Positions 976 to 37,694 of a stretch of DNA of 38,323 nt are shown one piece after another. Source of the stretch: a virus. The stretch is taken from positions 1 through 38,323 of the IMG/VR virus record IMGVR_UViG_3300036770_003868; one strand, 5' to 3'. A program made the position numbers and the translations under genes. The notes beneath the pieces are model-generated. The model was not told where the DNA came from and ran no database searches. It saw only the letters and a list, made by a program, of their open reading frames with translations. Within the stretch, counting starts at the first letter, position 1; every line of letters begins with the position of its first letter.

Positions 976-1217
976 GCGACACGAGCGAATTATTGGATTT
1001 CGGATGCACGAAGCGCGAGCTTATTGACGCTATCCACGCCGGAGCAAATCGCGCTGACGTGGCGCGCCTTGAAGGCGCCGTGTGGCGGCTATTCGACCGC
1101 GTCAGCGGCCTTCGCTTTTTCATGGACACGAAAGCGGAGCTGTTTGGAGAGGTGGAGCGGCTGCGAACTGAGGTGGAGAGGCTGCGGGCCGAGTTGGGGG
1201 GAAAAGCAAATGGATAA
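972..1217 (+). CDS. Hypothetical coiled-coil protein, 81 aa
   Basis: ATG 972 overlaps the upstream TGA (ATGA). The N-terminal half is a compact helical region. Residues about 55-78 form a coiled coil (EVERLRTEVERLRAELGG) like that of the 57-aa protein at 530. The stop (1215-1217) lies inside the next gene, whose ATG is at 1210, so this gene is translationally linked to the Tas-like gene. It could be a partner of that protein; nothing in the sequence proves this. Confidence 0.7.
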   Translation: MSDTSELLDFGCTKRELIDAIHAGANRADVARLEGAVWRLFDRVSGLRFFMDTKAELFGEVERLRTEVERLRAELGGKANG

Positions 1218-2001
1218 TCTTGAACCAGTAATTCGGCTGTCTCGCGATCTGCGAAACGCCGCTCACACTATGAGCGATGCAGAGGCGCGCTTTCTCGTTG
1301 ATGCATACTATCAGATGCAGGAAGATCGCATTCGCGATGATGGGCAGATCAGGTCAATGAGTGAGGAACCACATGCGGTTCTAGCTTATTTATCCGCGCA
1401 ACATGCAACGCTTGAGACCCAGATCAAGGGCGCGCTTGATCGTTACAGCATGAGCCGCCCGATTGGGATTTGGCTGCGCCAGCACAAAGGAATCGGCCCG
1501 GTTATCGCGGCTGGTCTCATGGCTCACATTGATATTCACAAAGCCCAGACAGCGTCTAACATTTGGCGGTATGCAGGCCTGGACCCGACGAGCAAATGGG
1601 AAAAGGGTCAAAAGCGCCCGTGGAATGCGAGCCTTAAAACCTTGTGCTGGAAGATTGGCGAAAGCTTTGTCAAAGTCTCCGGCATGACCGACGCTTATTA
1701 TGGACAGCTCTATGTTGCGGCTAAAGAGCGGGAGCTTAAGCGCAATGAGGAAGGCGGCAATGCTGCAACTGCGGCTGCGATTTTAGAAGCTAAGAAGTGG
1801 AAGGGCGACACAATAGCGAAGGCGGCGTATGAAAGCGGCAAGCTGCCCCCAGCGCATGTCCACGCCCGCGCGAAGCGGTGGGTCGTGAAACAATTCCTAT
1901 CAGACTTGCATAAGCGATGGCGCGAGCTCGAAGGCTTGCCCGTTGCTGACCCCTATCCCATCGCGCACATGAACCATGCTCATTTGCGGACGGGAACGTA
2001 A
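1210..2001 (+). CDS. tas: TIGR-associated protein, TasA-like (IS110/Nop-type core, no nuclease domain)
   Basis: The protein is 263 residues. Start ATG 1210 follows a GGGGGGAAAA site; an in-frame ATG at 1024 would overlap the upstream gene completely. Residues 85-160 resemble the C-terminal domain of IS110/IS116 transposases: GIGPVIAAGLMAHI at 94-107, YAGLDP at 121-126 and a basic helix NASLKTLCWKIGESF. A helical region precedes it and a basic helical tail follows (HARAKRWVVKQFLSDL, about 218-231), ending PYPIAHMNHAH. The N-terminal DEDD/RuvC catalytic domain of real IS110 transposases is absent, and I see no HNH or RuvC motif. Known: Tas proteins are Nop-domain proteins related to IS110 and to box C/D snoRNP proteins, encoded beside TIGR arrays. 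The array beginning at the stop codon of this gene makes TasA the best call. Expected role: RNA-guided DNA binding without cutting. Alternative: a domesticated transposase fragment with an unrelated repeat. Confidence 0.78.
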   Translation: MDNLEPVIRLSRDLRNAAHTMSDAEARFLVDAYYQMQEDRIRDDGQIRSMSEEPHAVLAYLSAQHATLETQIKGALDRYSMSRPIGIWLRQHKGIGPVIAAGLMAHIDIHKAQTASNIWRYAGLDPTSKWEKGQKRPWNASLKTLCWKIGESFVKVSGMTDAYYGQLYVAAKERELKRNEEGGNAATAAAILEAKKWKGDTIAKAAYESGKLPPAHVHARAKRWVVKQFLSDLHKRWRELEGLPVADPYPIAHMNHAHLRTGT

Positions 2002-2229
2002 GCCAAGAAATCAGAGACACCCATATCCTTCGAGCGAGCCACTCTGTTTGAGACACCCAGAACTAGAGAGCGAGCCACTTTGCTAGAGACACCCAAAGTT
2101 GAAGAGCGAGCCACCATAATAAAGACACCCATGGCGGCGAAGCGAGCCATACTGTCAGAGACACCCATAGCAGGAGAGCGAGCCAAGATTCATGAGACAC
2201 CCAGAAGTTTGGAGCGAGCCAAAGTCGTG
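1996..2229 (+). repeat. TIGR array: alternating 10-bp repeats and 8-bp spacers, period 36 bp
   Basis: Two 10-bp repeats alternate, GAGACACCCA and GAGCGAGCCA, identical at 7 of 10 positions. Each is followed by 8 unique bases. Six full 36-bp units fill 2014-2229 exactly. A degenerate repeat (ACGTAAGCCA, 1996-2005) overlaps the tas stop codon and adds a leading spacer. GAGACACCCA copies start at 2014, 2050, 2086, 2122 (first base A), 2158 and 2194; GAGCGAGCCA copies start at 2032, 2068, 2104, 2140 (first base A), 2176 and 2212. The 13 spacers are agaaatca, tatccttc, ctctgttt, gaactaga, ctttgcta, aagttgaa, ccataata, tggcggcg, tactgtca, tagcagga, agattcat, gaagtttg and aagtcgtg. Known: TIGR arrays are processed to 36-nt tigRNAs carrying two spacers of about 9 nt that pair with opposite DNA strands. 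The period and dual-spacer design match. The transcribed strand is assumed to be that of tas. Confidence 0.85.
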
Positions 2230-2237
2230 ATTGATCA

Positions 2238-2867
2238 ATGGGAATCCCTGCAATGACCCGTTCCCTGCGTGTTCTAGTGGCCTGCGAATATAGCGGGATC
2301 GTGCGCAACGCCTTTCTCGATCGCGGGCACGATGCCTGGTCGTGCGATCTGTTGCCCGCTGAGGATGGTAGTAACAGACATATCCGGGGCGATGTGCGGG
2401 ATATTTTGCACGAAGGTTGGGATATGCTCATTGTCGCGCACCCGCCCTGCACCCGTCTTTGCAATTCGGGTGTTCGGTGGTTATCAAAACCCCCACCGGG
2501 AAAAACCGTTCAGCAAATGCAAGTTGAATTGCAGGCTGGAGCGGAAATGTTTTCCCTTCTTTGGAATGCCCCTATCCCGCATCGGGCAATCGAGAACCCG
2601 GTCATGCACAAGCACGCTAAAGCATTGATCAAAAATTATCAGGAGCCCGCGCAAAGCGTTCAGCCTTGGCAATTCGGACATGGTGAGTGCAAGCGCACCT
2701 GTTTATGGCTGCACGATTTGCCGCCGTTAAAACCGACAAAGATTGTGGAAGGCCGTGACCAGCGCGTTCATCGCATGTCACCGGGTCCGCTAAGATGGAA
2801 AGAGCGTTCACGGTTCTATCCGGGAATTGCCGCCGCGATGGCCGATCAATGGGGTTCGCTACAATGA
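2238..2867 (+). CDS. DNA cytosine-5 methyltransferase-like protein, 209 aa
   Basis: The N-terminus VLVACEYSGIVRNAFLDRG followed by DAWSCDL has the Rossmann-type cofactor motif I of cytosine-5 methyltransferases. HPPCTRLCNSG (about residue 68) carries the Pro-Cys catalytic motif IV. IENP (about 118) sits where the family has motif VI ENV. No separate target-recognition domain is visible, and 209 residues is short for a complete enzyme; similar short proteins are common in phages. ATG 2238 lies 8 bp past the TIGR array; ATG 2253 is an equally possible start. The stop overlaps the next start (ATGA). It may methylate or otherwise modify phage DNA, or be degenerate. Confidence 0.75.
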   Translation: MGIPAMTRSLRVLVACEYSGIVRNAFLDRGHDAWSCDLLPAEDGSNRHIRGDVRDILHEGWDMLIVAHPPCTRLCNSGVRWLSKPPPGKTVQQMQVELQAGAEMFSLLWNAPIPHRAIENPVMHKHAKALIKNYQEPAQSVQPWQFGHGECKRTCLWLHDLPPLKPTKIVEGRDQRVHRMSPGPLRWKERSRFYPGIAAAMADQWGSLQ

Positions 2868-4400: not shown

Positions 4401-5494
4401 TTGAGCGGCCTCGTGGCTTTGACCGTGCCCCACTTTTGCAACGCCTCGCCGATGCACATCACGATGAAGCCCGCCAGAAGCTCGGCCACGATTGGATCCG
4501 CGGCGGCGTTCAGAAGCGTCGTCGAGCCCGTCCAGGTTATCCAGAGGCGTCCAAAGATGATCAGCCAAAGGCCCCAGAACCGGCGTGAGAGGATCATGTT
4601 CTTCGCGCCGGACCAATCCGCGTCCGGGCCGCTGCTGGCCATAGACACCGCCTCGCGTTGACGCCGCTCAGGCGGGAGCACTGGCGGCGGCGGCGGGGGT
4701 GGTGGGGGCGGAGGCGGAGGCGGAGGGGGCGGCGGAGGCATAGGCGGCGGCTCCTCAATCACGATTGCAGGAATTTCAAGGACAGGTTCCGGAACCGGCG
4801 CCTCAATCGGGGGAGGCTCGGGAACAGGAAGCGGAACAGGATCCGGCAGCGGCGTCTGTTCCACAATTTCCGGCCATTTGATCGGCCACACCGGCTCGAA
4901 CCTGGGCGGCCCTACGTCCTGGCGCGCGCGCTCAAGCGTGGCCTCAAGCGTGGTTGTTTCCTCCCAGTCGATATTGCCCGCGGGATCGGATCGAAGCTTG
5001 ATGAGATTAGGGCTGCACGCATTTTCCCACGGCAGGCCCGACCACAGGCAGGCTTCCGCCAGTCGTCGACGATAGAGGCCGCGAAGGGGTTTGCCGCCAG
5101 CTCGGCAGGCGCGCGGGATCTCCAAGAGTGCGCCCGCGTAATCCTTGGCTTTGAGCTTAAGGCGGAGCGTTTCCAGAAGGCGGCCTAGATTATAGCAATA
5201 CGAGACGAGCGCATCGAATTGCCCTTGCGTGAGCGGCGTGTCTGGAATGTCTTGCCGGACATTGTGTGCGAACCGCTCCATCTCCTCGCGAAGCCTCACG
5301 TCCGCCTCGGCGATCGACATTGTCTGACCGGGGCCAACGCCTTGTGTGAACCCGTATCCGATGGTCCAAATGCCCACCACGTCCTGATAAGCGGCAGGCC
5401 GAAAAGCCTCAAAGTGGCGGATCAGCTTGGCGCACGCCTCGGAGGGCGTTAGCTCGGACGGCAATCTTGTCCGTGGTATCTCAATCCCGACCAT
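4397..5494 (-). CDS. Endolysin: GH24 lysozyme fused to polyproline linker and membrane region
   Basis: The protein has 365 residues from ATG 5494 (GTG 5497 is one codon upstream; GAGG lies just before). Residues about 15-150 are a T4-type (GH24) lysozyme: E29, D38 and T44 in HFEAFRPAAYQDVVGIWTIG keep the E-8-D-5-T spacing of the catalytic triad. A Pro/Glu/Val-rich linker follows (about 210-255), then about 19 consecutive prolines (4682-4738). The C-terminus has two hydrophobic segments (WGLWLIIFGRLWITW and AELLAGFIVMCIGEAL). It degrades peptidoglycan at lysis. Membrane segments after a proline spacer are unusual for an endolysin and suggest membrane tethering or a built-in holin-like function. 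The gene overlaps its neighbours on both sides. Confidence 0.85.
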   Translation of the reverse strand: MVGIEIPRTRLPSELTPSEACAKLIRHFEAFRPAAYQDVVGIWTIGYGFTQGVGPGQTMSIAEADVRLREEMERFAHNVRQDIPDTPLTQGQFDALVSYCYNLGRLLETLRLKLKAKDYAGALLEIPRACRAGGKPLRGLYRRRLAEACLWSGLPWENACSPNLIKLRSDPAGNIDWEETTTLEATLERARQDVGPPRFEPVWPIKWPEIVEQTPLPDPVPLPVPEPPPIEAPVPEPVLEIPAIVIEEPPPMPPPPPPPPPPPPPPPPPPPVLPPERRQREAVSMASSGPDADWSGAKNMILSRRFWGLWLIIFGRLWITWTGSTTLLNAAADPIVAELLAGFIVMCIGEALQKWGTVKATRPLK

Positions 5495-13025: not shown

Positions 13026-15389
13026 TCACCCAAACGGGGTCAAACCCGTAAAGCCGAAATCGGAAGTTCTAGTCGTCGTCCGCCCCGAGGTCGTGCCCTG
13101 CTGGTTCGTATTAACCAGGGTCGGAAGCTGGCCCAGAATGCTGTTGCGCACGCTCAATTCAAGCTGCAAGCGCTGCAGAGCGTCCGCCGCCTCGCGATCG
13201 AACTCCGCCCGCTGAGCAAGCAAGCGGGCCTGCTCAATCTCCCGTTCCGTCGCGCCAAGCCGCGCAAACTGGTCAACCGTCGCTTGCGCAAGCTGCGCCT
13301 GCTGTCCGGCAAACTGTCCAAGCAACCCGCCACCCTGTAGAGCCCTCTGCGCCGCCGCGTCTCGCGCCTGGGCGTTGGCAAGGTTCGCTTGCTGTTGAAA
13401 CTGAGCGTTGGACAACAAGCCCTGATTGAATGCCTCTGCGCCAAACTGGCCCGCCGCGTTCTGAGCCGCTGCGTTGAACTGCCCCGCCTGCTGCTGAAAG
13501 GCCGCCTGTTGTTGCGCAAACTCGTTCCGCGCCTGAGCATTCGCCTGGTCCACCGTAAGGCCCATTTGCGCAAGCTCGCTTGCGCGCCGGTTGACGGCCT
13601 CCTGATTGGCAAGCCCGGCTTGTTGAGTAAAGCCCGCCTGCGTCCGCGCAAATTCGTTCTGAGCCTGTGCATTCGCCTGATCAGCCGTGAGCCCCAGTTG
13701 CGCCAGTTCGGACGCGCGCCGGTTGATTGCTTCCTGATTTGCCAGTCCGGCTTGCTGTTGAAAGCCCGCCTGAGCTTGCGTGAACTGATTAGCCGCCCCG
13801 ACATTCGCAAGGCCCGCCTGCTGGGCAAGTTGCCCCTGCTCGATCGCCCGCTGGTTTTGCGCCGCGGCATTGAACTGTCCGGCCTGTTGCGCGAAGCCCG
13901 CCTGCTGCTGGGCAAATTCATTGCGCGCCTGCATGTTGGCTTGATCCGCCGTAAGCCCAAGCTGCGCCAGCTCTGAAGCCCGCTGATTGATTGCGGCCTG
14001 ATTTGCAAGCCCGGCCTGTTGCGCAAAGCCCGCTTGCGCTTGTGCAAATTGATTTTGCGCCCCCACGTTTGCAAGGCCGGTTTGTTGCGCCAATTGCGCT
14101 TGCTCTGCTGCGCGTTGATTAGCCGCCGCCTGATTTGCAAGTCCGGCCTGTTGCGCAAAGCCTGCCTGCTGTTGAGCAAATTCATTGCGCGCCTGAGCAT
14201 TGGCTTGTTCGACAGACAAACCAATCTGCGCCAGTTCTGAAGCCCGCTGATTGATCGCCGCCTGGTTCGCCAGGCTCGCTTGCTGTTCAAAGCCCGCTTG
14301 CGCTTGCCGCTGGGCGTTGATCTGCGCCACGTCCTGGCCAAGCAGACCAAGCCCCTGTTGAAATGCCTGATTGCGCAAGTTGGCTTCTGTGAGCGCCCGG
14401 TTCAATCCTGATTCAGCCGCAAACGCCCCCTCTCGGACCCCGTAACGTGATCCGCCAAAAGCGTTTTGCCCCGCCGCTTGCGCCGCCATCTGTGCGCGCT
14501 GTTGCGCGGCCTGCCGGTCAAACGCGGCCAGCGTTGGATTAACAAGCTGCTCTAGCTGCGGGTTCATGTACTCCCCAAGCAAGCCTAGACGGGTCCGGAT
14601 CTCTTCCGCCGGTCCAATCTGGGCCGCTTGCATACGCGCCGCTTCGCCAAGCTGAGGGGCGTTGATTTGCGCCGCTGGCCCTAGTTGAGCCGCTTGCATT
14701 TGCGCCGCTTCGCCAAGATTAACGCCGCCAAACATAGCCGCGGGGCCAAGTTGCGCCGCCTGCATACGCGCAGCTTCCCCAAGCTGAGGGGCGTTGACTT
14801 GTGCGGCTGGTCCAAGCTGCGCCGCCTGCATCTGCGCCGCATCGCCAAGATTGACACCGCCAAACATAGCCGCCGGGCCAAGCTGAGCCGCTTGCATCCG
14901 TTCGGCCTCACCCATCTGAGGGGCGCGCACCTGAGCCGCTCCGCCAAGCTGGGCCGCCTGCATGGTTTGGGCCGCGCCAAGCTGAGGCGCTCCGATTTGT
15001 GCAGCGGGCGCCATCTGCGCCGCTTGCATCGTTGAGGGAGTATAGCCCTGAAGCGCCCCGAGCTGGGCCGCCTGCGTCAGCGCCGGGCCTTGATTGACGC
15101 CCGTTTGAATCATGTTCTGCGCGTTGCTAAACAATCCCCCAATGTTCGCAAGGTTTTGATTGGCAAGCTGGCGCGCCTGCTGTTCGGCGCTGCTCAAGCC
15201 CGCCACCATTGGCCCGCTGTAGGCTCTGAACGGGTTAGCCTGATTATATTGCTGCAACGCGCTCAACATACCACCGGACAGGTCCTCAAAGCGACCTTGC
15301 GTCCACGGGTTAAGCGTCTGCTGTTGCGCGCTCGTCTGCTGCTGGTTAGACGTCTCAGTTGACTTCTTCGCGCTGCCGCTCAAGCTCAT
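13026..15389 (-). CDS. Repetitive Ala/Gln-rich internal virion protein, 787 aa
   Basis: Start ATG 15389 has a GGAGG site and overlaps the upstream stop (TAATG); a longer frame to 15479 lies inside the previous gene. Two repeat zones are clear. Residues about 130-270 contain ~16-residue units of the form AAQMQAAQLGPAAQ with APQLG or GGVNLG. Residues about 370-690 contain ~44-residue units (QQAGLANQAAINQRASELAQ then LGLTADQANAQARNEF). Hardly any aromatic residue or cysteine is present in the repeats, so an extended helical rod is likely. It may form part of the ejection core or tail tube. The DNA repeats are not identical, so they are old. Confidence 0.65.
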   Translation of the reverse strand: MSLSGSAKKSTETSNQQQTSAQQQTLNPWTQGRFEDLSGGMLSALQQYNQANPFRAYSGPMVAGLSSAEQQARQLANQNLANIGGLFSNAQNMIQTGVNQGPALTQAAQLGALQGYTPSTMQAAQMAPAAQIGAPQLGAAQTMQAAQLGGAAQVRAPQMGEAERMQAAQLGPAAMFGGVNLGDAAQMQAAQLGPAAQVNAPQLGEAARMQAAQLGPAAMFGGVNLGEAAQMQAAQLGPAAQINAPQLGEAARMQAAQIGPAEEIRTRLGLLGEYMNPQLEQLVNPTLAAFDRQAAQQRAQMAAQAAGQNAFGGSRYGVREGAFAAESGLNRALTEANLRNQAFQQGLGLLGQDVAQINAQRQAQAGFEQQASLANQAAINQRASELAQIGLSVEQANAQARNEFAQQQAGFAQQAGLANQAAANQRAAEQAQLAQQTGLANVGAQNQFAQAQAGFAQQAGLANQAAINQRASELAQLGLTADQANMQARNEFAQQQAGFAQQAGQFNAAAQNQRAIEQGQLAQQAGLANVGAANQFTQAQAGFQQQAGLANQEAINRRASELAQLGLTADQANAQAQNEFARTQAGFTQQAGLANQEAVNRRASELAQMGLTVDQANAQARNEFAQQQAAFQQQAGQFNAAAQNAAGQFGAEAFNQGLLSNAQFQQQANLANAQARDAAAQRALQGGGLLGQFAGQQAQLAQATVDQFARLGATEREIEQARLLAQRAEFDREAADALQRLQLELSVRNSILGQLPTLVNTNQQGTTSGRTTTRTSDFGFTGLTPFG

Positions 15390-15730
15390 TAGATGTCCCT
15401 CCGAAGCATGGGCCGCCAGCCAAGATTCCGAAGCACCCGCGCCCAGCCTTCCCGGCCTTCCGCCGTCAAGCCTGAGCATCCCAAGCGCCGCGCCAGATCC
15501 ACCGCGCTCGCCTCCATCTCGCGCAGTTCAGCCATTGAGCCGCCCGCAAGCCATACATGCAGCGTCTTTTGATCAAGGATCTGCGTCACCGCCGCGCTGC
15601 GCTTGCCCGGCCACAAAAGCGCATCACCGCTTGCAAGCTGCTCGTCCACATCCCGCAAGGTCTTACCCTCGCGCGCATGATCCAGCGCGCTTTGCAGGAT
15701 GGGGGCCAAAACGCCAAGGTCAGGTTTCAT
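15389..15730 (-). CDS. Conserved small phage protein, acetyltransferase-like fold suspected, 113 aa
   Basis: The protein has the pattern LLWPGKRSAAVTQI, then LHVWLAGGSMAELREME, then ARRLGCSGLTAEGREGWARV. I know this pattern from small phage structural-region proteins that look like shortened GNAT folds. It overlaps the hub gene by 4 nt (15727-15730) and the next gene by the TAATG junction. Its role in the virion is unknown. Confidence 0.6.
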   Translation of the reverse strand: MKPDLGVLAPILQSALDHAREGKTLRDVDEQLASGDALLWPGKRSAAVTQILDQKTLHVWLAGGSMAELREMEASAVDLARRLGCSGLTAEGREGWARVLRNLGWRPMLRRDI

Positions 15731-18150: not shown

Positions 18151-18525
18151 TTAAATCCCTAGCGCTGAGAAGGATCCAATCGTTGTGTTCTTCGTCGTAT
18201 CGACCACCGTAACGGTTGAAGTGTCGGCTGTAGTCATACCGCTATCACGAAACGCCAGCGTGTCGCTATTTGCAACTGTGAGCGTCGTCCCGTTTGTGTA
18301 AGTCGTCCAAGCCCCTGAATTTTTGCTATATTGCTTTGTCCCGCCCGTGCCTCCGTCTACCAGATCAAGCCGGATGTTGCCGGGGTTAGTTGCCGGAACT
18401 GTAAGCGTCCGCGTTGCACTGGTCGCCGTTCCTGGAACCACCACGGACACAACGCCCCAATCCGTATTAACCGTGATTGGCTTTACGGAGCCCATCGAGG
18501 AAGCAAGCAGAGCGATTAGGCTCAT
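18151..18525 (-). CDS. Small beta-rich protein, 124 aa, probably fibre-associated
   Basis: ATG 18525 overlaps the fibre stop (ATGA) and follows GGAGG; a longer frame to 18552 would overlap the fibre gene needlessly. The sequence is rich in Thr, Ser and Val with almost no charged residues, beginning with a short hydrophobic stretch (MSLIALLASSMGS). It resembles Ig-like or bacterial surface-type beta domains. Position directly after the tail fibre suggests fibre decoration or cap. Confidence 0.65.
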   Translation of the reverse strand: MSLIALLASSMGSVKPITVNTDWGVVSVVVPGTATSATRTLTVPATNPGNIRLDLVDGGTGGTKQYSKNSGAWTTYTNGTTLTVANSDTLAFRDSGMTTADTSTVTVVDTTKNTTIGSFSALGI

Positions 18526-21500
18526 GTGACTGAGCCTCCCGAGACGACGCATTCCGTGGCGGATACGAAGAAAATTGAGGCCATGCCGTAAGCGGCGACT
18601 GTCCGGCTTCCCGTGGTAGACGTTCCATCCAGCCTCATTGTTGTAATCGTGCCGGCCGTGATCGTGCGGGAGCTTGAACCCGCGTAGACGACCACAACAT
18701 CCCCCGCAGCGAAGACACTGTTATTGATCGTGATGTTGCCCGTTAGCTGAATGGTCTTGTTGGCGCTTGCGCTTGTAAGCGTGCCCGTTGTCTCGCTTGA
18801 GGCGGCAATTCTTGCCAAAATTGTTGGAGCGGCTAGTTGCCCATTCGTGCGATTAAAGGACATATTTAGCGTAAGGTCGTTATTATAGACCACAAACGCA
18901 TTAGTTGCCGAAGTTCCTAAGTAACCGCGCACCGTCCCATTGTCTTTTAAAACAATGCTGTAATCGCTGGCAGTTGTGCGGTTAACGACGATCGGCTCTG
19001 CGCCGCTGGTTTGGAAGGTCTGCTGCGCCGTCCAAGTAATAGCCGTTCCGGGGAGGTTGCCTCCATGGTAAATGGTGTTCCCCGCTATTAACGGTACTGC
19101 TGAACTGTTTATGCTCAACGGCGTGGAAGAATATGAACCGCCAGAATAACGATTTACAAACAAACTTCCGTCAGCGTCATTATATCCAATATCGTATTTA
19201 ATTTCTGATGCTGTTGAAAACCGTAACCCGTTGTTGCTGCCCGCGACGACCCGAATGTTGACCGGGTATGACTGAGTCCAAGTAATAGCCGTTCCGGGGA
19301 GGTTGCCGGCGTCAAAAACGGTACTACCCGCAGCCGTTGTTAAAGCACCAGAAGTATTCAACACATAACGCGCCGTATTGTTTTGAAACAACACGAATGG
19401 GTAATTGCTATTTGTGCCTATTCCTCCTTGTTCCCCAGAGGGGCCATTTGTCCAATAGGCGCCAGAATAAGCGGTTCCGGTATAAACGATGTCCATTTGT
19501 CTTGTGTTATTGGACATGCCAATGCGAACTGAACCATTCGTATTTGTTGCTGTAGCATTTAAAGCATAACCATTTGTTGTTTGAAAATTCTGCACCGCCG
19601 TCCAAGTTAGCGCCGTGCCGGGGAGGTTGCCCGCGTGGTAAACGGTGTTGCCGCCCGCCGTTGGAGTTTGCGAAAATGCGACAACGTCGGAACCGTTAAT
19701 TGTGACCGCTGGCGTGCTGACATACCGTCCAATAACTAACAAGCCTGCGCCAAAACCGGATCCGGTTGCCGTAGACCAGATCGCCCATTTGTCGGTTGCT
19801 CCCGCTTGATTATTGTCAATAATCAAGCCCAAATTGTTTTGGGATCCTGTAATTAGAATGTGGCCAAGGTCAGAGCCCGGTGCGTTAAAGGTTTGTTGGG
19901 CGGTCCAACTAATTGCAGTGCCTGGAAGGTTGGCCGCATGGTAAACTGTGTTTCCATTGACTTGCAAAACATTGCTTGAAAGGAACGAGAATGAGGCCGT
20001 TCCGTTGTCGAAAAAGTCTAAATGTCCGCTTGAGTCGATTTCGATATCCCAAGCGTTAACATTGTGCCGAGATAGTCTGTAGGTTGGCGTTCCGGTCCAT
20101 GCCGTTAAATCTAGAACTGAATCACCGGTATTGATCGCCACCCCGCCGTTGTATCCCGGACCAACGTGCAACCGCGTTCCAGATGCGCTGGGGTTGATTG
20201 TTTGCGCCGCTGAAAACGTATTAGCCCCATCCAGATAGGGGATTTTCGTCCCGCTCGTCCCCGTGTCCGAGGCCATGAGGACGTTGGAGCCCTCAACCGC
20301 AATCCGGCCCGCACTGGCCCGCGTGATTGTTGTGTCTGTCGCGTGGCCGACATTGACCGCCGTAAACTGGGGGCTGTCTCCGGTCCCGAGCCCAAGATTA
20401 GTCGCAGCGCCCGCCGCCGTGCTGGCGCCTGTGCCGCCGTCTGCAACCGCAAGATCGGTAATCCCAGTGATTGAGCCGCCAGAAATAGAAACGGAGGACG
20501 CCGCCTGCGTGGCCATTGTGCCCAGCCCAAGCGTGGTTCGCGCCGTAGCTGCGTCCGCATCGTCTATGAGCGTTCGCGCGTAGCTGGTTAATGTGGTTGT
20601 CCCAGCTGTACCCGAGCCGGTGAAGTAAGGAAGCGCATCCGCCGCGCTGGTTACGCTCGCAAGCGCCGCAAGTTCGGGGTCATAGGCCTGGACATTGGTC
20701 CCGATCGCAAGCCCTAAGTTTGTGCGCGCCGTCGCCGCATCGCTCGCACCCGTTCCCCCGTCTGCAACCGCAAGATCCGTAATACCGGTTATAGAACCAC
20801 CAGAGATAGAAACGGAGGACGCCGCCTGCGTGGACATTGTGCCCAGCCCCAGGTTGGTCCGCGCCCCCGCCGCATCACTTGCCCCCGTGCCGCCATCTGC
20901 AACCGCTAGATCCGTGATGCCCGTAATTGAGCCGCCAGAGATAGAAACGGAAGAGGCTGCTTGAGTGGATATTGACCCGAGCCCGAGCGTGCTTCTAGCC
21001 GTTGAAGCGTCTACATCATCAATGAGAGTGCGCCCATAGCTGGTTAGTGTGGTTGTTGCAGCCGTGCCCGAGCCCGTGAAATAGGGAAGCGCATCTGCCG
21101 CGCTCGTAACGCCAGCAAGCGCCGCAAGCTCAGGGTCGTAGGCCTGGACGTTGGTCCCGATCGCCAGCCCTAGGTTTGTCCGAGCCGTCGCCGCGTCACT
21201 GGCCCCGGTCCCCCCGTCCGCGACTGCAATGTCCGTAATGCCTGTAATTGAGCCGCCGGAGATTGAAACAGAGGAGGCCGCCTGAGTGGCCATTGTGCCC
21301 AAGCCCAGATTAGTCCGCGCCGTTGCCGCATCACTTGCCCCCGTCCCCCCATCGGCGACCGCAAGATCCGTAATCCCGGTCACGCTCCCGCCCGTAATCG
21401 CTACGTTATTAGCGTACTGAGTGGCGATTGTCCCAAGGCCCAGAGTCGTCCTCTGCGCTGCGTTGTCCGCATCATCCACCAGCGCCCGGCCCGCCGCCGA

Positions 21501-22235
21501 GAAGTCAGCCATAGCCCAGGTTCCAGCCCCCGTTGAATAAGGAACCTTGTTCGCCGCACTCGTCAGCGCCGCAATCGCCGTCAAATCCGCATCAATCGGC
21601 TGAAAGCCCGTCAGATCAACCGTCGCCCATTCAACGGAACTCTCGCCTGCATTAACCCTAAGAAATTTAAGGGCATTGCCAGACAATGCGGGAAGGTTGC
21701 CAGCCGCCGCCGCCAGAACTGCTGCGTTAAGCTGCTGTAGCGTAACCGGGTGCAGGTTACTTGAGCCGTCCGCAACCAGCGTTATGTTGCCGGTCATCGT
21801 GCCGCCGGTGAGCTTTAGAAAGGTTGCGTCGACGTAAGCGAGCGAGGCGCCATCGTCCCCGACATAGACGTCTGTGCCGTTCGTAAAGACCATTCGGCTT
21901 TGAGCCGCGGGAACGCTCGCCGTCACCCCGCCCGCGCTGAACGTGACCGCTGCGGAACACGCATTTCGGACCAGATACCACTTTTCCACTCCGGGAATTG
22001 TGACCGTGAACCCACCCGCTCCGCTTAGCCAAAGCTGGCGCATCCGTGCTTGATCGCTGGTGTAGTTCGTCGAGGTCAGAGTGACGTTGCCGCTCACCGT
22101 GATTAACGCCACCCCGTCCATAGCCTCGTCGACCATGGTGAACACGTTGGAGTTGAGCGAGCTTCCCCAAGTATTTGTTTTATCGCCGGTTCCGATTAAT
22201 TCCAGCCGGTTGCGGGTTGTAGGTGTCGAGACCAT
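18522..22235 (-). CDS. Tail fibre protein, 1237 aa
   Basis: The N-terminus (RLELIGTGDKTNTWGSSLNSN) is the virion-attachment type found in podovirus fibres. A LHPVTLQQLNAA motif follows near residue 160. The shaft has several near-identical blocks (SISGGSITGITDLAVADGG, then TGASDAATARTNLGLG), and a second shaft has four copies of a YHAGNLPGTAITWTAQQTF-type unit. The C-terminal ~120 residues are beta-rich (TIQLTGNITINNSVFAAGDV) and are the likely receptor-binding or trimerising part. It determines host recognition. The repeated blocks at 20,400-21,400 are similar at DNA level and may recombine. Confidence 0.88.
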   Translation of the reverse strand: MVSTPTTRNRLELIGTGDKTNTWGSSLNSNVFTMVDEAMDGVALITVSGNVTLTSTNYTSDQARMRQLWLSGAGGFTVTIPGVEKWYLVRNACSAAVTFSAGGVTASVPAAQSRMVFTNGTDVYVGDDGASLAYVDATFLKLTGGTMTGNITLVADGSSNLHPVTLQQLNAAVLAAAAGNLPALSGNALKFLRVNAGESSVEWATVDLTGFQPIDADLTAIAALTSAANKVPYSTGAGTWAMADFSAAGRALVDDADNAAQRTTLGLGTIATQYANNVAITGGSVTGITDLAVADGGTGASDAATARTNLGLGTMATQAASSVSISGGSITGITDIAVADGGTGASDAATARTNLGLAIGTNVQAYDPELAALAGVTSAADALPYFTGSGTAATTTLTSYGRTLIDDVDASTARSTLGLGSISTQAASSVSISGGSITGITDLAVADGGTGASDAAGARTNLGLGTMSTQAASSVSISGGSITGITDLAVADGGTGASDAATARTNLGLAIGTNVQAYDPELAALASVTSAADALPYFTGSGTAGTTTLTSYARTLIDDADAATARTTLGLGTMATQAASSVSISGGSITGITDLAVADGGTGASTAAGAATNLGLGTGDSPQFTAVNVGHATDTTITRASAGRIAVEGSNVLMASDTGTSGTKIPYLDGANTFSAAQTINPSASGTRLHVGPGYNGGVAINTGDSVLDLTAWTGTPTYRLSRHNVNAWDIEIDSSGHLDFFDNGTASFSFLSSNVLQVNGNTVYHAANLPGTAISWTAQQTFNAPGSDLGHILITGSQNNLGLIIDNNQAGATDKWAIWSTATGSGFGAGLLVIGRYVSTPAVTINGSDVVAFSQTPTAGGNTVYHAGNLPGTALTWTAVQNFQTTNGYALNATATNTNGSVRIGMSNNTRQMDIVYTGTAYSGAYWTNGPSGEQGGIGTNSNYPFVLFQNNTARYVLNTSGALTTAAGSTVFDAGNLPGTAITWTQSYPVNIRVVAGSNNGLRFSTASEIKYDIGYNDADGSLFVNRYSGGSYSSTPLSINSSAVPLIAGNTIYHGGNLPGTAITWTAQQTFQTSGAEPIVVNRTTASDYSIVLKDNGTVRGYLGTSATNAFVVYNNDLTLNMSFNRTNGQLAAPTILARIAASSETTGTLTSASANKTIQLTGNITINNSVFAAGDVVVVYAGSSSRTITAGTITTMRLDGTSTTGSRTVAAYGMASIFFVSATECVVSGGSVT

Positions 22236-35298: not shown

Positions 35299-35877
35299 AT
35301 GACCACCAAACACGAGACACTCTCCGCCGCGCTGGCCGCCGCTCAGGCGGTCATGCCTACGGTTGTGAAAGACCGCGTCGCCAAAATCGGCCCCGGTCGC
35401 GAGTACCGCTATGCGGACCTTGCAACAATCTTGGCCACCGTCCGCCCTGTCCTGGGCGCGCACGGGCTGGCGCTGACCCAACGGACGCAGATCCGGGGCG
35501 ATGCTATCGTCCTGCTGACCGAGCTGCGCCACGCCAGCGGCGAGGTGCTCGACTCAGAGTATCCGGTCGCCGCGATCGGGGCGCGGCATCAGGACATGGG
35601 CGGCGCCCTTACCTACGCCCGCCGATATGCGCTCTGCGGCCTGATTGGCATTGCCGCCGACGAGGATGATGACGGGGCGACGGCCCCTGCCCCTGTGCCG
35701 GTTCGTGAACCTGCGATCTCTGCCGACCAAGCGCTGGAAATCAATGACATGCTGACCGAGTTGGGCGCAAACCGCGCTGCGTTCCTTAAGTGGGCGCAGG
35801 CGGATAGCGTCGAGCAGATCCCGGCCCGTAAATATGAGGCCGTTCGGAACAAGCTGTCAGCCAAGCGGGGGGCATAA
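35299..35877 (+). CDS. erf: ERF-type single-strand annealing protein, 192 aa
   Basis: YRYADLATILATVRPVLGAH, GLALTQRT and DMGGALTYARRYALCGLIGI are the conserved core of the ERF superfamily, followed by an acidic DEDDD stretch and a C-terminal helical region (NRAAFLKWAQADSVEQIPAR). A GGAAAGGGAAG site precedes ATG 35299. The protein anneals complementary single strands in phage recombination and probably works with the exonuclease at 37725. Three pentapeptide-repeat genes are inserted between the pair. The stop overlaps the next ATG (TAATG). Confidence 0.92.
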   Translation: MTTKHETLSAALAAAQAVMPTVVKDRVAKIGPGREYRYADLATILATVRPVLGAHGLALTQRTQIRGDAIVLLTELRHASGEVLDSEYPVAAIGARHQDMGGALTYARRYALCGLIGIAADEDDDGATAPAPVPVREPAISADQALEINDMLTELGANRAAFLKWAQADSVEQIPARKYEAVRNKLSAKRGA

Positions 35878-36521
35878 TGCCGGTTGAAATCAAACACCGT
35901 GATACGGGCGCGGTTCTGCACACCGTCCAGGCCGACACGCTACGCGGGGCGGACCTGAACGGAACGGACCTAGGCGGGGCGGACCTGAGCTGGGCGGACC
36001 TGAGCGGGGCGAACCTGCTTGGGGCAAACCTGGGCGGAACGGACCTGAGCGGGGCAAACCTGAGCGGGGCGGACTTGCGCAGTGCGAATTTAAACCGTGC
36101 CCTTTTGAGCAACGCGGATTTGCGCGGGGCGGACCTGCGCGGGGTAAATTTGCGCGAAGCGTACTTGTACGGGGCAAACTTGTGCAGGGCGGATTTGCGC
36201 GGGGCGGACCTGCGCGGGGTAAATTTGCGCGAAGCGTACTTGTACGGGGCGGACTTGCACCGGGCGGACCTAGGCGGGGCGGTTATTAACGCCGACAAGC
36301 TTGATCGTCTATTGGCCCGCGCTACGCGGGTCAGCGATGGTCACGAGTTTTTCCTCTTCGCGCTCCAAGACGGCCCACCGAAAATCAAAGCCGGATGCCG
36401 TTGGCTGACGATTGACGATTACCGCGCCCATATCGACGCTAATTATTCCGATACGGCCAAGGCGTCGGAAACTTTAGACATTCTAAGATATTTTGAATTG
36501 CGCGGCGCCGGGAGGGCGTGA
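35877..36521 (+). CDS. Pentapeptide-repeat protein 1, 214 aa
   Basis: A short N-terminal part (MPVEIKHRDTGAVLHTVQAD) is followed by about 23 tandem pentapeptides of the A(D/N)LXX type, which fold into a right-handed four-sided beta helix. A 75-residue C-terminal domain follows (RATRVSDGHEFFLFALQDG, then AGCRWLTIDDYRAHI), shared with the two genes downstream. Known: some pentapeptide proteins (Qnr, MfpA) mimic DNA and bind gyrase. Here the gene lies between ERF and exonuclease, so a role in recombination or topology is plausible but unproven. Overlaps on both sides suggest coupled translation. Confidence 0.85.
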   Translation: MPVEIKHRDTGAVLHTVQADTLRGADLNGTDLGGADLSWADLSGANLLGANLGGTDLSGANLSGADLRSANLNRALLSNADLRGADLRGVNLREAYLYGANLCRADLRGADLRGVNLREAYLYGADLHRADLGGAVINADKLDRLLARATRVSDGHEFFLFALQDGPPKIKAGCRWLTIDDYRAHIDANYSDTAKASETLDILRYFELRGAGRA

Positions 36522-37219
36522 TGCCAATTAAAATCAAACACCGTTTCACGGGCGCGGTCTTGCACACCGTCCAAGCCGACACGCTACTTAGAGCAAACTT
36601 GAGCGGGGCGAACCTGTACGGGGCGGACCTGCTCGGGGCGGACCTGCGCGGAGCGAACCTGTACGGGGCGGACCTGAGCTGGGCGGACCTGGGCGGGGCG
36701 AGCCTGAGCTGGGCAAACCTGAGCGGAGCAAACTTAGGCAGTGCAAACTTAAACCGTGCCCTTTTGAGCAGAGCGCGCTTAGACGGAGTGAAACTAAACG
36801 GATCGAACATGCTCGGGGCGGACCTGAGCAGGGTAAATTTGCGCGAAGCGTACCTGCACGGGGCAAACTTGTGCAGGGCAAACCTGCGCGAAGCGGATTT
36901 GCGCGGGGCGGACCTTGGCGGAGTAAACATAAACGGGGCGGATCTGCACGGGGCGTATCTGAGCGGGGCGGTTATCAACGCTGACAAGCTCGACCGGCTA
37001 TTGGCCCGCGCCACGCGGGTCAGCGATGGTCACGAGTTCTTCCTCTTCGCGCTCCAAGACGGCCCGCCAAAGGTCAAAGCCGGCTGCCGCTGGATGACGA
37101 TTGCCGATTACCGCGCTCACGTCGCCGCTAATTATTCCGATACGGACAAGGCAACGGAAACTTTAGACATTCTGACATATTTTGAATTACGCGGCGCAGG
37201 GGGACGTGATGCCAGTTGA
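36521..37219 (+). CDS. Pentapeptide-repeat protein 2, 232 aa
   Basis: ATG 36521 (MPIKIKHRFTG) overlaps the previous TGA (TGATG); GTG 36518 is one codon upstream. About 26 pentapeptides follow, some irregular (ARLDG VKLNG SNMLG). The C-terminal domain is nearly the same as in copy 1 (VSDGHEFFLFALQDGPPK). The gene arose by tandem duplication and has the longest helix of the three. The next ATG is inside its last codons (11-nt overlap). Confidence 0.85.
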   Translation: MPIKIKHRFTGAVLHTVQADTLLRANLSGANLYGADLLGADLRGANLYGADLSWADLGGASLSWANLSGANLGSANLNRALLSRARLDGVKLNGSNMLGADLSRVNLREAYLHGANLCRANLREADLRGADLGGVNINGADLHGAYLSGAVINADKLDRLLARATRVSDGHEFFLFALQDGPPKVKAGCRWMTIADYRAHVAANYSDTDKATETLDILTYFELRGAGGRDAS

Positions 37220-37694
37220 AATCAAAAACTTTACGGGCGCGGCCTTACATATTGTTGAGGCCGACACGCTACGCGGGGCGGACCTGAACGGAACGGACCT
37301 AGGCGGGGCGGACCTGCGCGGGGCAAATCTGCGCGGGGCGGACCTGAGCCGGGCCGACCTGTGGGGGGCGGACCTGAGCGGGGCAAATTTGGGCGGGGCG
37401 GACCTGAGCGGGGCAAATTTGGGCGGGGCGGACCTGACCAGAGCGAATCTAACCGGGGCAGTTATCAACGCCGACAAGCTTGACCGGTTACTGGCCCGCG
37501 CTACGCGCGTTATAGACGGTCATGATTTTTTCCTCTTTGCGCTTCAGGACGGTCTGCCAAAGATCAAAGCCGGCTGCCGCTGGATGACCATCGCCGAGTA
37601 CCGGGCCCATGTTGCCGCTAAGTATCCCGAGACAGACAAGGCGCGGGAAACGCTGAACATTCTTAATTATTTCGAGGCTTGCACATATGGCTAA
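37209..37694 (+). CDS. Pentapeptide-repeat protein 3, 161 aa
   Basis: ATG 37209 (MPVEIKNFTG) matches the starts of the other two copies; an upstream ATG at 37182 is inside copy 2. Only about 13 pentapeptides are present, so this copy has roughly half the helix length. The C-terminal domain is conserved (VIDGHDFFLFALQDGLPK, AGCRWMTIAEYRAHV) and ends YFEACTYG. The difference in repeat number points to recombination inside the 15-bp GGGGCGGACCTG-type DNA repeats. Confidence 0.85.
   Translation: MPVEIKNFTGAALHIVEADTLRGADLNGTDLGGADLRGANLRGADLSRADLWGADLSGANLGGADLSGANLGGADLTRANLTGAVINADKLDRLLARATRVIDGHDFFLFALQDGLPKIKAGCRWMTIAEYRAHVAAKYPETDKARETLNILNYFEACTYG

What the first reader, a model, noticed from the sequence alone, without database searches (positions are those of the whole stretch)
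1996..2229. Array geometry: 6.5 units of 36 bp, 13 unique spacers, degenerate edge at the tas stop codon
Repeat positions fit the 18-bp grid without a single indel. The first repeat (1996-2005) is degenerate at 4 of 10 bases and contains the tas stop. Two adjacent repeats in the middle (2122 and 2140) share the same G to A change at base 1, which flanks the only GC-rich spacer (tggcggcg). A conserved edge next to one odd spacer suggests that one unit was acquired or copied separately. If the first repeat base is counted as spacer, spacers are 9 nt, closer to the reported length.
Basis: seen in the sequence. Interest (0 to 1): 0.75.

Follow-up and report, generated by a model that had tools for sequence, protein, structure and literature searches.

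The report
TIGR guide array beside phage tasA
This phage carries a TIGR guide-RNA array next to a nuclease-free Tas protein; relatives show that such arrays change by swapping whole two-spacer cassettes, and in one soil bacterium such an array matches the control genes of a rival mobile element in the same chromosome.

Summary
The repeat grid is real: 13 ten-base repeats on an exact 18-bp grid (1996-2221), edge GAGCGAGCCA alternating with loop GAGACACCCA, enclosing 12 (not 13) unique 8-nt spacers, i.e. six tigRNA units. The adjacent 263-aa gene passes NCBI's TIGR-Tas model (212 bits, cut-off 100) and folds like TasH/TasR but has no nuclease domain, so this is a TIGR-TasA locus: a new member of a known kind. 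The 'degenerate' first repeat is the usual 5'-truncated edge; its overlap with the tas stop recurs in 57 of 82 relatives. The G-to-A change is ordinary: that base is G or A across the family.

Between related phages, shared blocks end at edge repeats, not loop repeats (424 against 38 unique breaks; all seven informative clades), with no end polarity: the A-loop-B pair is the inherited cassette. No self-target was found. In one relative, Acidobacteriaceae KBS 96, a unit matches (16/16) the excisionase-like gene of another integrated element in the same chromosome; two further units match partly within 1 kb. Silencing of rival elements becomes directly testable, but this rests on one genome and did not replicate in three others.

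The parts
1210..2001 (+). tasA: 263-aa Tas protein, Nop/IS110-like RNA-binding domain, no nuclease domain; stop TAA at 1999-2001
   Evidence: NCBIfam NF052498 TIGR_Tas_endo 212 bits (cut-off 100), residues 26-238; Pfam Transposase_20; AlphaFold model pLDDT 83 closest to TasH and TasR, Foldseek E 7e-8 and 4e-7
1996..2005 (+). first, 5'-truncated edge repeat (ACGTAAGCCA), overlapping the tas stop codon
   Evidence: stop at the same offset (3-4) in 57 of 82 relatives
2006..2041 (+). unit 1: spacer A 2006-2013, loop 2014-2023, spacer B 2024-2031, edge 2032-2041
2042..2077 (+). unit 2: A 2042-2049, loop 2050-2059, B 2060-2067, edge 2068-2077
2078..2113 (+). unit 3: A 2078-2085, loop 2086-2095, B 2096-2103, edge 2104-2113
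2114..2149 (+). unit 4: A 2114-2121, loop 2122-2131 (AAGACACCCA), GC-rich B 2132-2139, edge 2140-2149 (AAGCGAGCCA)
   Evidence: base 1 is G or A across the family
2150..2185 (+). unit 5: A 2150-2157, loop 2158-2167, B 2168-2175, edge 2176-2185
2186..2221 (+). unit 6: A 2186-2193, loop 2194-2203, B 2204-2211, terminal full edge 2212-2221
   Evidence: no terminator found on the + strand downstream

Best explanation
The feature is a dual-repeat TIGR array transcribed with and directly behind tasA. Six 36-nt tigRNAs (half edge - spacer A - loop - spacer B - half edge) would be cut from it and bound by a TasA dimer. Each tigRNA recognises a contiguous target of about 16 bp in which A pairs with one strand and B with the other (top strand = A + reverse complement of B, no gap). 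Because TasA lacks a nuclease, it should bind and bend the target and block transcription or replication rather than cut. The most likely target is another mobile element in the same cell: in the relative in Acidobacteriaceae KBS 96 the array matches the excisionase and replication genes of a second integrated element. Arrays evolve by gain, loss, duplication and exchange of whole A-loop-B cassettes with breakpoints in edge repeats and no leader-end polarity. Shown here: identity of gene and array, cassette evolution, absence of self-targets, one candidate target. Inferred: transcription, processing, binding and silencing, and that the window's array acts like that of KBS 96.
For: Tas identity by curated model and fold. 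A DNA pattern made only of the two repeats found 33 viral records, 28 with a tas homologue; arrays adjoin tas in 80 of 85 relatives. The validated SpTIGR array has nearly the same repeats (edge AAGCGAGCCA, loop AAGACAACCA) on the same grid. Cassettes: unique breaks at edge 424, at loop 38, 7 of 7 informative clades, although loops are the better conserved repeat in the largest clade; neighbour across a loop replaced in 8-16% of shared spacers, across an edge in 48-49%. No self or mutual targeting. KBS 96 target: exact 16-bp match of unit 2, none in 149 sampled genomes of the family, in a phrog_66 excisionase-like gene of an element with integrase, repressor, O-like replication gene and head genes beside tRNA-Glu; units 5 and 6 match 14/16 and 13/16 within 1 kb; score of the five other units reached in 0 of 3780 windows of the same genome, 0 of 500 letter-permuted sets, 7 of 400 mispaired sets, and not by wrong geometries. 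The tas element there is a separate prophage beside tRNA-Phe.
Against: No target for the window's own units was found; unit 4 matches in viral contigs (11 contigs, about 5 unrelated families) look like chance. The KBS 96 target is one case, about 0.02 to 0.06 likely by chance for the exact hit alone; no match of 15/16 or better near integrases of three other hosts. Units 1, 3 and 4 of KBS 96 have no convincing target. The array lacks the usual 3'-truncated edge and terminator. No RNA data.
Confidence: 0.8

Rival explanations
1. TIGR-TasA locus whose tigRNAs regulate or aid the phage's own DNA (own promoters, replication, integration) rather than rivals.
For: TasR bends target DNA about 180 degrees, and the authors suggest TasA may aid integrases (PMC12045711). 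TasA has no nuclease, so self-binding would be harmless.
Against: No A + rc(B) site better than 14/18 in the window; no excess of sites in TIGR phage genomes over mispaired or wrong-geometry controls. Spacers differ completely between relatives with 89% identical tas, unlike self-regulatory sites.
Confidence: 0.12
2. A static tandem repeat or repeat-coding sequence without a guide function; the antisense ORF 2063-2464 reads through it.
For: 36 bp is a multiple of 3 and a minus-strand ORF is open through much of the array. Phages of 98-99% identity have identical arrays.
Against: Spacer letters are near random in all eight columns while repeats are conserved. Whole two-spacer units are exchanged at edge repeats. 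The repeats co-occur with tas, and near phage relatives fetched over the region show neither.
Confidence: 0.02
3. Remnant of an IS110-family element whose transposase lost its catalytic domain; the repeats are by-products.
For: Pfam Transposase_20 and PHROG 'transposase' labels; weaker fold match to IS621.
Against: IS110 equivalog model scores 27.7 bits, cut-off 140, while the TIGR-Tas model scores 212, cut-off 100. The family has intact ORFs and arrays in 80 loci.
Confidence: 0.02

Closest known systems
SpTIGR-TasH of Salicola phage CGphi29 (PMC12045711; cryo-EM 9w04, 21kl)
   Same: 18-bp grid, 10-nt repeats, 8-nt spacers; edge AAGCGAGCCA (one base from the window's), loop AAGACAACCA (two bases); array downstream of tas in a phage
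   Different: TasH carries an N-terminal HNH nuclease; here it is absent. SpTIGR ends in a terminator; none is seen here
TIGR-TasA systems such as FpTIGR (PMC12045711)
   Same: solo Nop-domain Tas with a dual-repeat array; TasA binds 36-nt tigRNA
TaTIGR-TasR (PDB 9mty)
   Same: Nop fold (Foldseek E 4e-7), box-C-like CCA at the repeat ends
   Different: RuvC nuclease domain, 9-nt spacers, repeats starting UG
IS110 / IS621 bridge-RNA recombinases (8wt6)
   Same: shared RNA-binding domain
   Different: no DEDD recombinase domain, no single bridge RNA, NCBIfam IS110 cut-off not met

Membership tests
TIGR-Tas | Nop-domain Tas protein | tested here: met
   NF052498 212 bits against cut-off 100; Foldseek TasH/TasR E 7e-8
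TIGR-Tas | two alternating 8-12-nt repeats with short unique spacers (about 9 nt, 8 in SpTIGR) | tested here: met
   10-nt edge and loop, 8-nt spacers, 18-bp grid
TIGR-Tas | array next to tas | tested here: met
   array starts inside the tas stop region
[quoted passage not shown]
   1996-2005 keeps only the 3' half of the edge
TIGR-Tas | ends with 3'-truncated edge and rho-independent terminator (described as typical, not obligatory) | tested here: not met
   last edge 2212-2221 is complete; no + strand terminator-like site between 2221 and 3400
TIGR-Tas | 36-nt tigRNAs bound by Tas | not testable with these tools
   needs RNA sequencing
TIGR-Tas | tandem-spacer DNA binding on opposite strands | tested here: inconclusive
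   not testable for the window; in KBS 96 only this geometry with gap 0 gives the match cluster
TasA class | no nuclease domain | tested here: met
   263 aa, helical N-terminus, no HNH or RuvC in Pfam
IS110 transposase | DEDD domain and full-length match to the IS110 model | tested here: not met
   27.7 bits against cut-off 140, residues 43-128 only

The most novel reading that the evidence does not exclude
TIGR-TasA is an RNA-guided silencer used by prophages and phages against other mobile elements in the same cell: its tigRNAs are aimed at early control genes (excisionase, replication) of rival elements, and arrays adapt without an adaptation machinery, by non-polar exchange of A-loop-B cassettes through edge repeats.
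Probability: 0.55. Interest if true: 0.87.

Novelty: new member of a known kind. Interest (0 to 1): 0.66.

Why it matters
The discovery paper names the natural targets of TIGR spacers and the way arrays grow as open questions (PMC12045711). This window led to a family large enough to address both: arrays turn over as two-spacer cassettes with breaks in edge repeats, which supports the A-loop-B pair as the functional guide without any RNA data, and one genome-sequenced bacterium carries both an array and a matching rival element, so the target question can be tested at the bench.

Tried and rejected
Self-targets in the window: best 14/18, chance level. Targets among TIGR phages: no excess over mispaired, same-strand or swapped controls. 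Idea that allelic spacers differ at synonymous codon positions of a coding target: striking in a few families but not overall (within-spacer period-3 21 of 83, expected 25%; synonymous test z 1.26 for the true geometry). Search of viral contigs for the target of window unit 4: 11 contigs, 7 from one virus family, chance level. Search for the KBS 96 unit 5 target: 14 contigs, none homologous to the KBS 96 gene. Replication of the rival-element target in Halomonas sp. NO4, Propionivibrio and a Pyrinomonadaceae MAG, near integrases only: best 14/16, chance level for Halomonas and Pyrinomonadaceae, a small unexplained excess in Propionivibrio (4 against 0 and 0 in controls). Association of tas with the phrog_757 methyltransferase: 1 of 108 loci, so not a partner (the background part of that script failed). 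Base-1 G-to-A as a mark of a separately acquired unit: rejected. Known RNA families and tRNAs in the window: none. No PADLOC defence model matches Tas.

Full report
WHAT IS THERE. The window is a 38,323-base IMG/VR virus record. Behind the gene at 1210-2001 lie 13 ten-base repeats on an exact 18-bp grid: ACGTAAGCCA at 1996, then GAGACACCCA and GAGCGAGCCA in alternation from 2014 to 2221, with A instead of G at base 1 in the copies at 2122 and 2140. Twelve 8-base spacers lie between them, all different. The detector that finds this array finds none in shuffled sequence. Near phage relatives of the window (L272-L275, 48-83% identical in a protein 3.5 kb away) have neither tas nor array in the fetched region, and no tas was found in their records.

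WHAT THE GENE IS. The 263-aa product scores 212 bits against NCBI's TIGR-Tas model (cut-off 100) and only 27.7 against the IS110 model (cut-off 140). Its profile finds TasR, TasH, IS621 and ISCro4 among solved structures; its AlphaFold model (pLDDT 83) is closest to TasH and TasR (Foldseek E 7e-8 and 4e-7). No nuclease domain is detected, so it is a TasA. The array of the experimentally characterised TasH system of phage CGphi29 has edge AAGCGAGCCA, loop AAGACAACCA and 8-nt spacers on the same 18-bp grid (16 nt per tigRNA in PMC12045711), so the 10 + 8 reading needs no correction.

INDEPENDENT LINK OF REPEATS AND TAS. A scan of viral contigs for GACACCCA-N8-RAGCGAGCCA, which holds no tas sequence, returned 40 stretches in 33 records; 28 of them carry a tas homologue, against 0 of 9 records fetched through the window's terminase. 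Conversely, 80 of 85 tas loci have a grid array within 500 bases downstream or 700 upstream.

THE DEGENERATE FIRST EDGE AND THE G-TO-A CHANGE. In 82 relatives with an array at the tas stop, the stop codon lies at offset 3 or 4 of the first repeat in 57: the first edge is 5'-truncated and fused with the stop codon as a rule. The discovery paper describes 5'-truncated first edges as typical; it does not mention the stop codon in its main text. Base 1 of the repeat is G in 601 and A in 513 of 1180 repeats, so two A bases among the window's twelve mark nothing special.

HOW ARRAYS EVOLVE. Phages 98-99% identical over their length have identical arrays. At 89% tas DNA identity (L002/L003) spacers are near chance similarity while repeats are kept (a few slots by eye still look alike). 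Between these extremes lie clades with 91-99% identical tas in which arrays share some units and not others. Blocks shared by two arrays end at edge repeats far more often than at loop repeats: 1385 against 106 in all, 424 against 38 unique events, the same direction in all seven informative clades. In the largest clade the loop repeat is the better conserved one (0.89 against 0.80), so homology at the break does not explain the bias. When a spacer is shared, its neighbour across a loop differs in 8-16% of cases and across an edge in 48-49%. Duplications inside arrays lie at multiples of 36 bp apart from one AT-rich case. New units are spread evenly along arrays, and the order of shared units is kept (3536 pairs against 100): there is no leader-end growth as in CRISPR. 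The heritable unit is therefore edge-A-loop-B, which matches the 36-nt tigRNA. Why left-hand breaks at loops outnumber right-hand ones (28 against 3 in the largest clade) is not explained.

TARGETS. By the published rule (top strand = A + reverse complement of B; contiguous, gaps of 1-2 bp tolerated; the orientation follows from the reported 8-nt 3' overhangs and the C-5 rule) no site in the window matches its own units better than 14 of 18, and the units of all fetched arrays have no excess of sites in 3.7 Mb of fetched DNA over mispaired and wrong-geometry controls. A scan of one genome per species gave 15 relatives, among them Acidobacteriaceae KBS 96 with tas and six units (L377). Each unit was searched in its own 6.7-Mb genome with gaps 0-2. 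Unit 2 has one exact, gap-free target, TAAAAGCAGAATCGAA, absent from 149 sampled genomes of the same family. It covers codons 9-14 of an 86-aa HTH_17, excisionase-like gene (phrog_66). Around it are a second HTH_17 gene, a divergent HTH repressor, an O-like replication gene, an integrase beside tRNA-Glu, and major head protein and head protease genes: an integrated phage or capsid-bearing satellite. The tas gene lies in a different prophage beside tRNA-Phe, with integrase, terminase and portal.

HOW GOOD IS THAT TARGET. For six units the chance of an exact hit in this genome is about 0.02 (gap 0) to 0.06 (gaps 0-2). With the site fixed by unit 2, the other five units were scored within 1 kb: unit 5 matches 14/16 and unit 6 13/16, both gap-free, in the replication gene. 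No other 2-kb window in about 420 kb of the same genome (0 of 3780) and none of 16,400 windows of other fetched DNA reaches that score; 0 of 500 letter-permuted sets do, 7 of 400 mispaired sets do (mispairing keeps the exact half-match), and same-strand or swapped geometries score 0-1. This is good evidence from one genome. It did not repeat near the integrases of Halomonas sp. NO4, Propionivibrio or a Pyrinomonadaceae MAG, where only part of each genome was examined.

MECHANISM. Shown: gene and array identity, cassette evolution, lack of self-targets, one candidate target. Taken from PMC12045711: processing to 36-nt tigRNAs, symmetric dimer, opposite-strand pairing, DNA bending. Inferred: without a nuclease, TasA represses by occupying and bending early control genes of rival elements; the window's array does the same to elements not identified here.

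VERDICT. The window feature is an ordinary, well-formed TIGR-TasA locus, a new member of a known kind. Its value lies in what its relatives show about two questions that the discovery paper left open.

Noticed in passing
L377; L401:1501-1516; L402:19052 and 19237; L403:921-2150: Array of a TasA prophage in Acidobacteriaceae KBS 96 matches the excisionase-like and replication genes of another integrated element (tRNA-Glu) in the same chromosome: 16/16, 14/16 and 13/16.
   Followed up: yes
L171-L173 (G001), L198-L202 (G018), L174 (G002): Some phage records carry several separate TIGR arrays scattered over the genome, not only next to tas.
   Followed up: no
L376:3624-3957 and 4799-5025: Arrays up- and downstream of tas share one unit (TCTCCAGC / GCGAGAAT): cassettes seem to move between arrays of one locus.
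   Followed up: no
unit families of the L324-L344 clade: Variable positions in B spacers are uneven: columns 1, 4 and 7 change rarely (10 of 69), columns 2, 5 and 8 often (35); A spacers do not show it. Unexplained.
   Followed up: partly
1213 units: Slight excess of units whose A resembles the reverse complement of B (51 with 5 or more of 8 matching, about 31 expected), i.e. direct-repeat-like targets; related units inflate the count.
   Followed up: no
L455:8266, L456:3470, L457:10231: In Propionivibrio, 14/16 matches near integrases occur only in the true geometry (4 against 0 and 0), two of them for the same unit in similar sites.
   Followed up: partly
window 35877-37694: Three tandem genes with pentapeptide repeats (A(D/N)L motifs), close paralogues.
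   Followed up: no
window 18522-22235 and 13026-15479: Two large minus-strand genes with long internal repeats (GGTGASDAATARTNLGLG-type and AAQMQAAQLGPAAQ-type), probably virion proteins.
   Followed up: no
window 2238-2867: phrog_757 'DNA methyltransferase'-like gene directly behind the array; also next to tas in L002 but in only 1 of 108 tas loci.
   Followed up: yes
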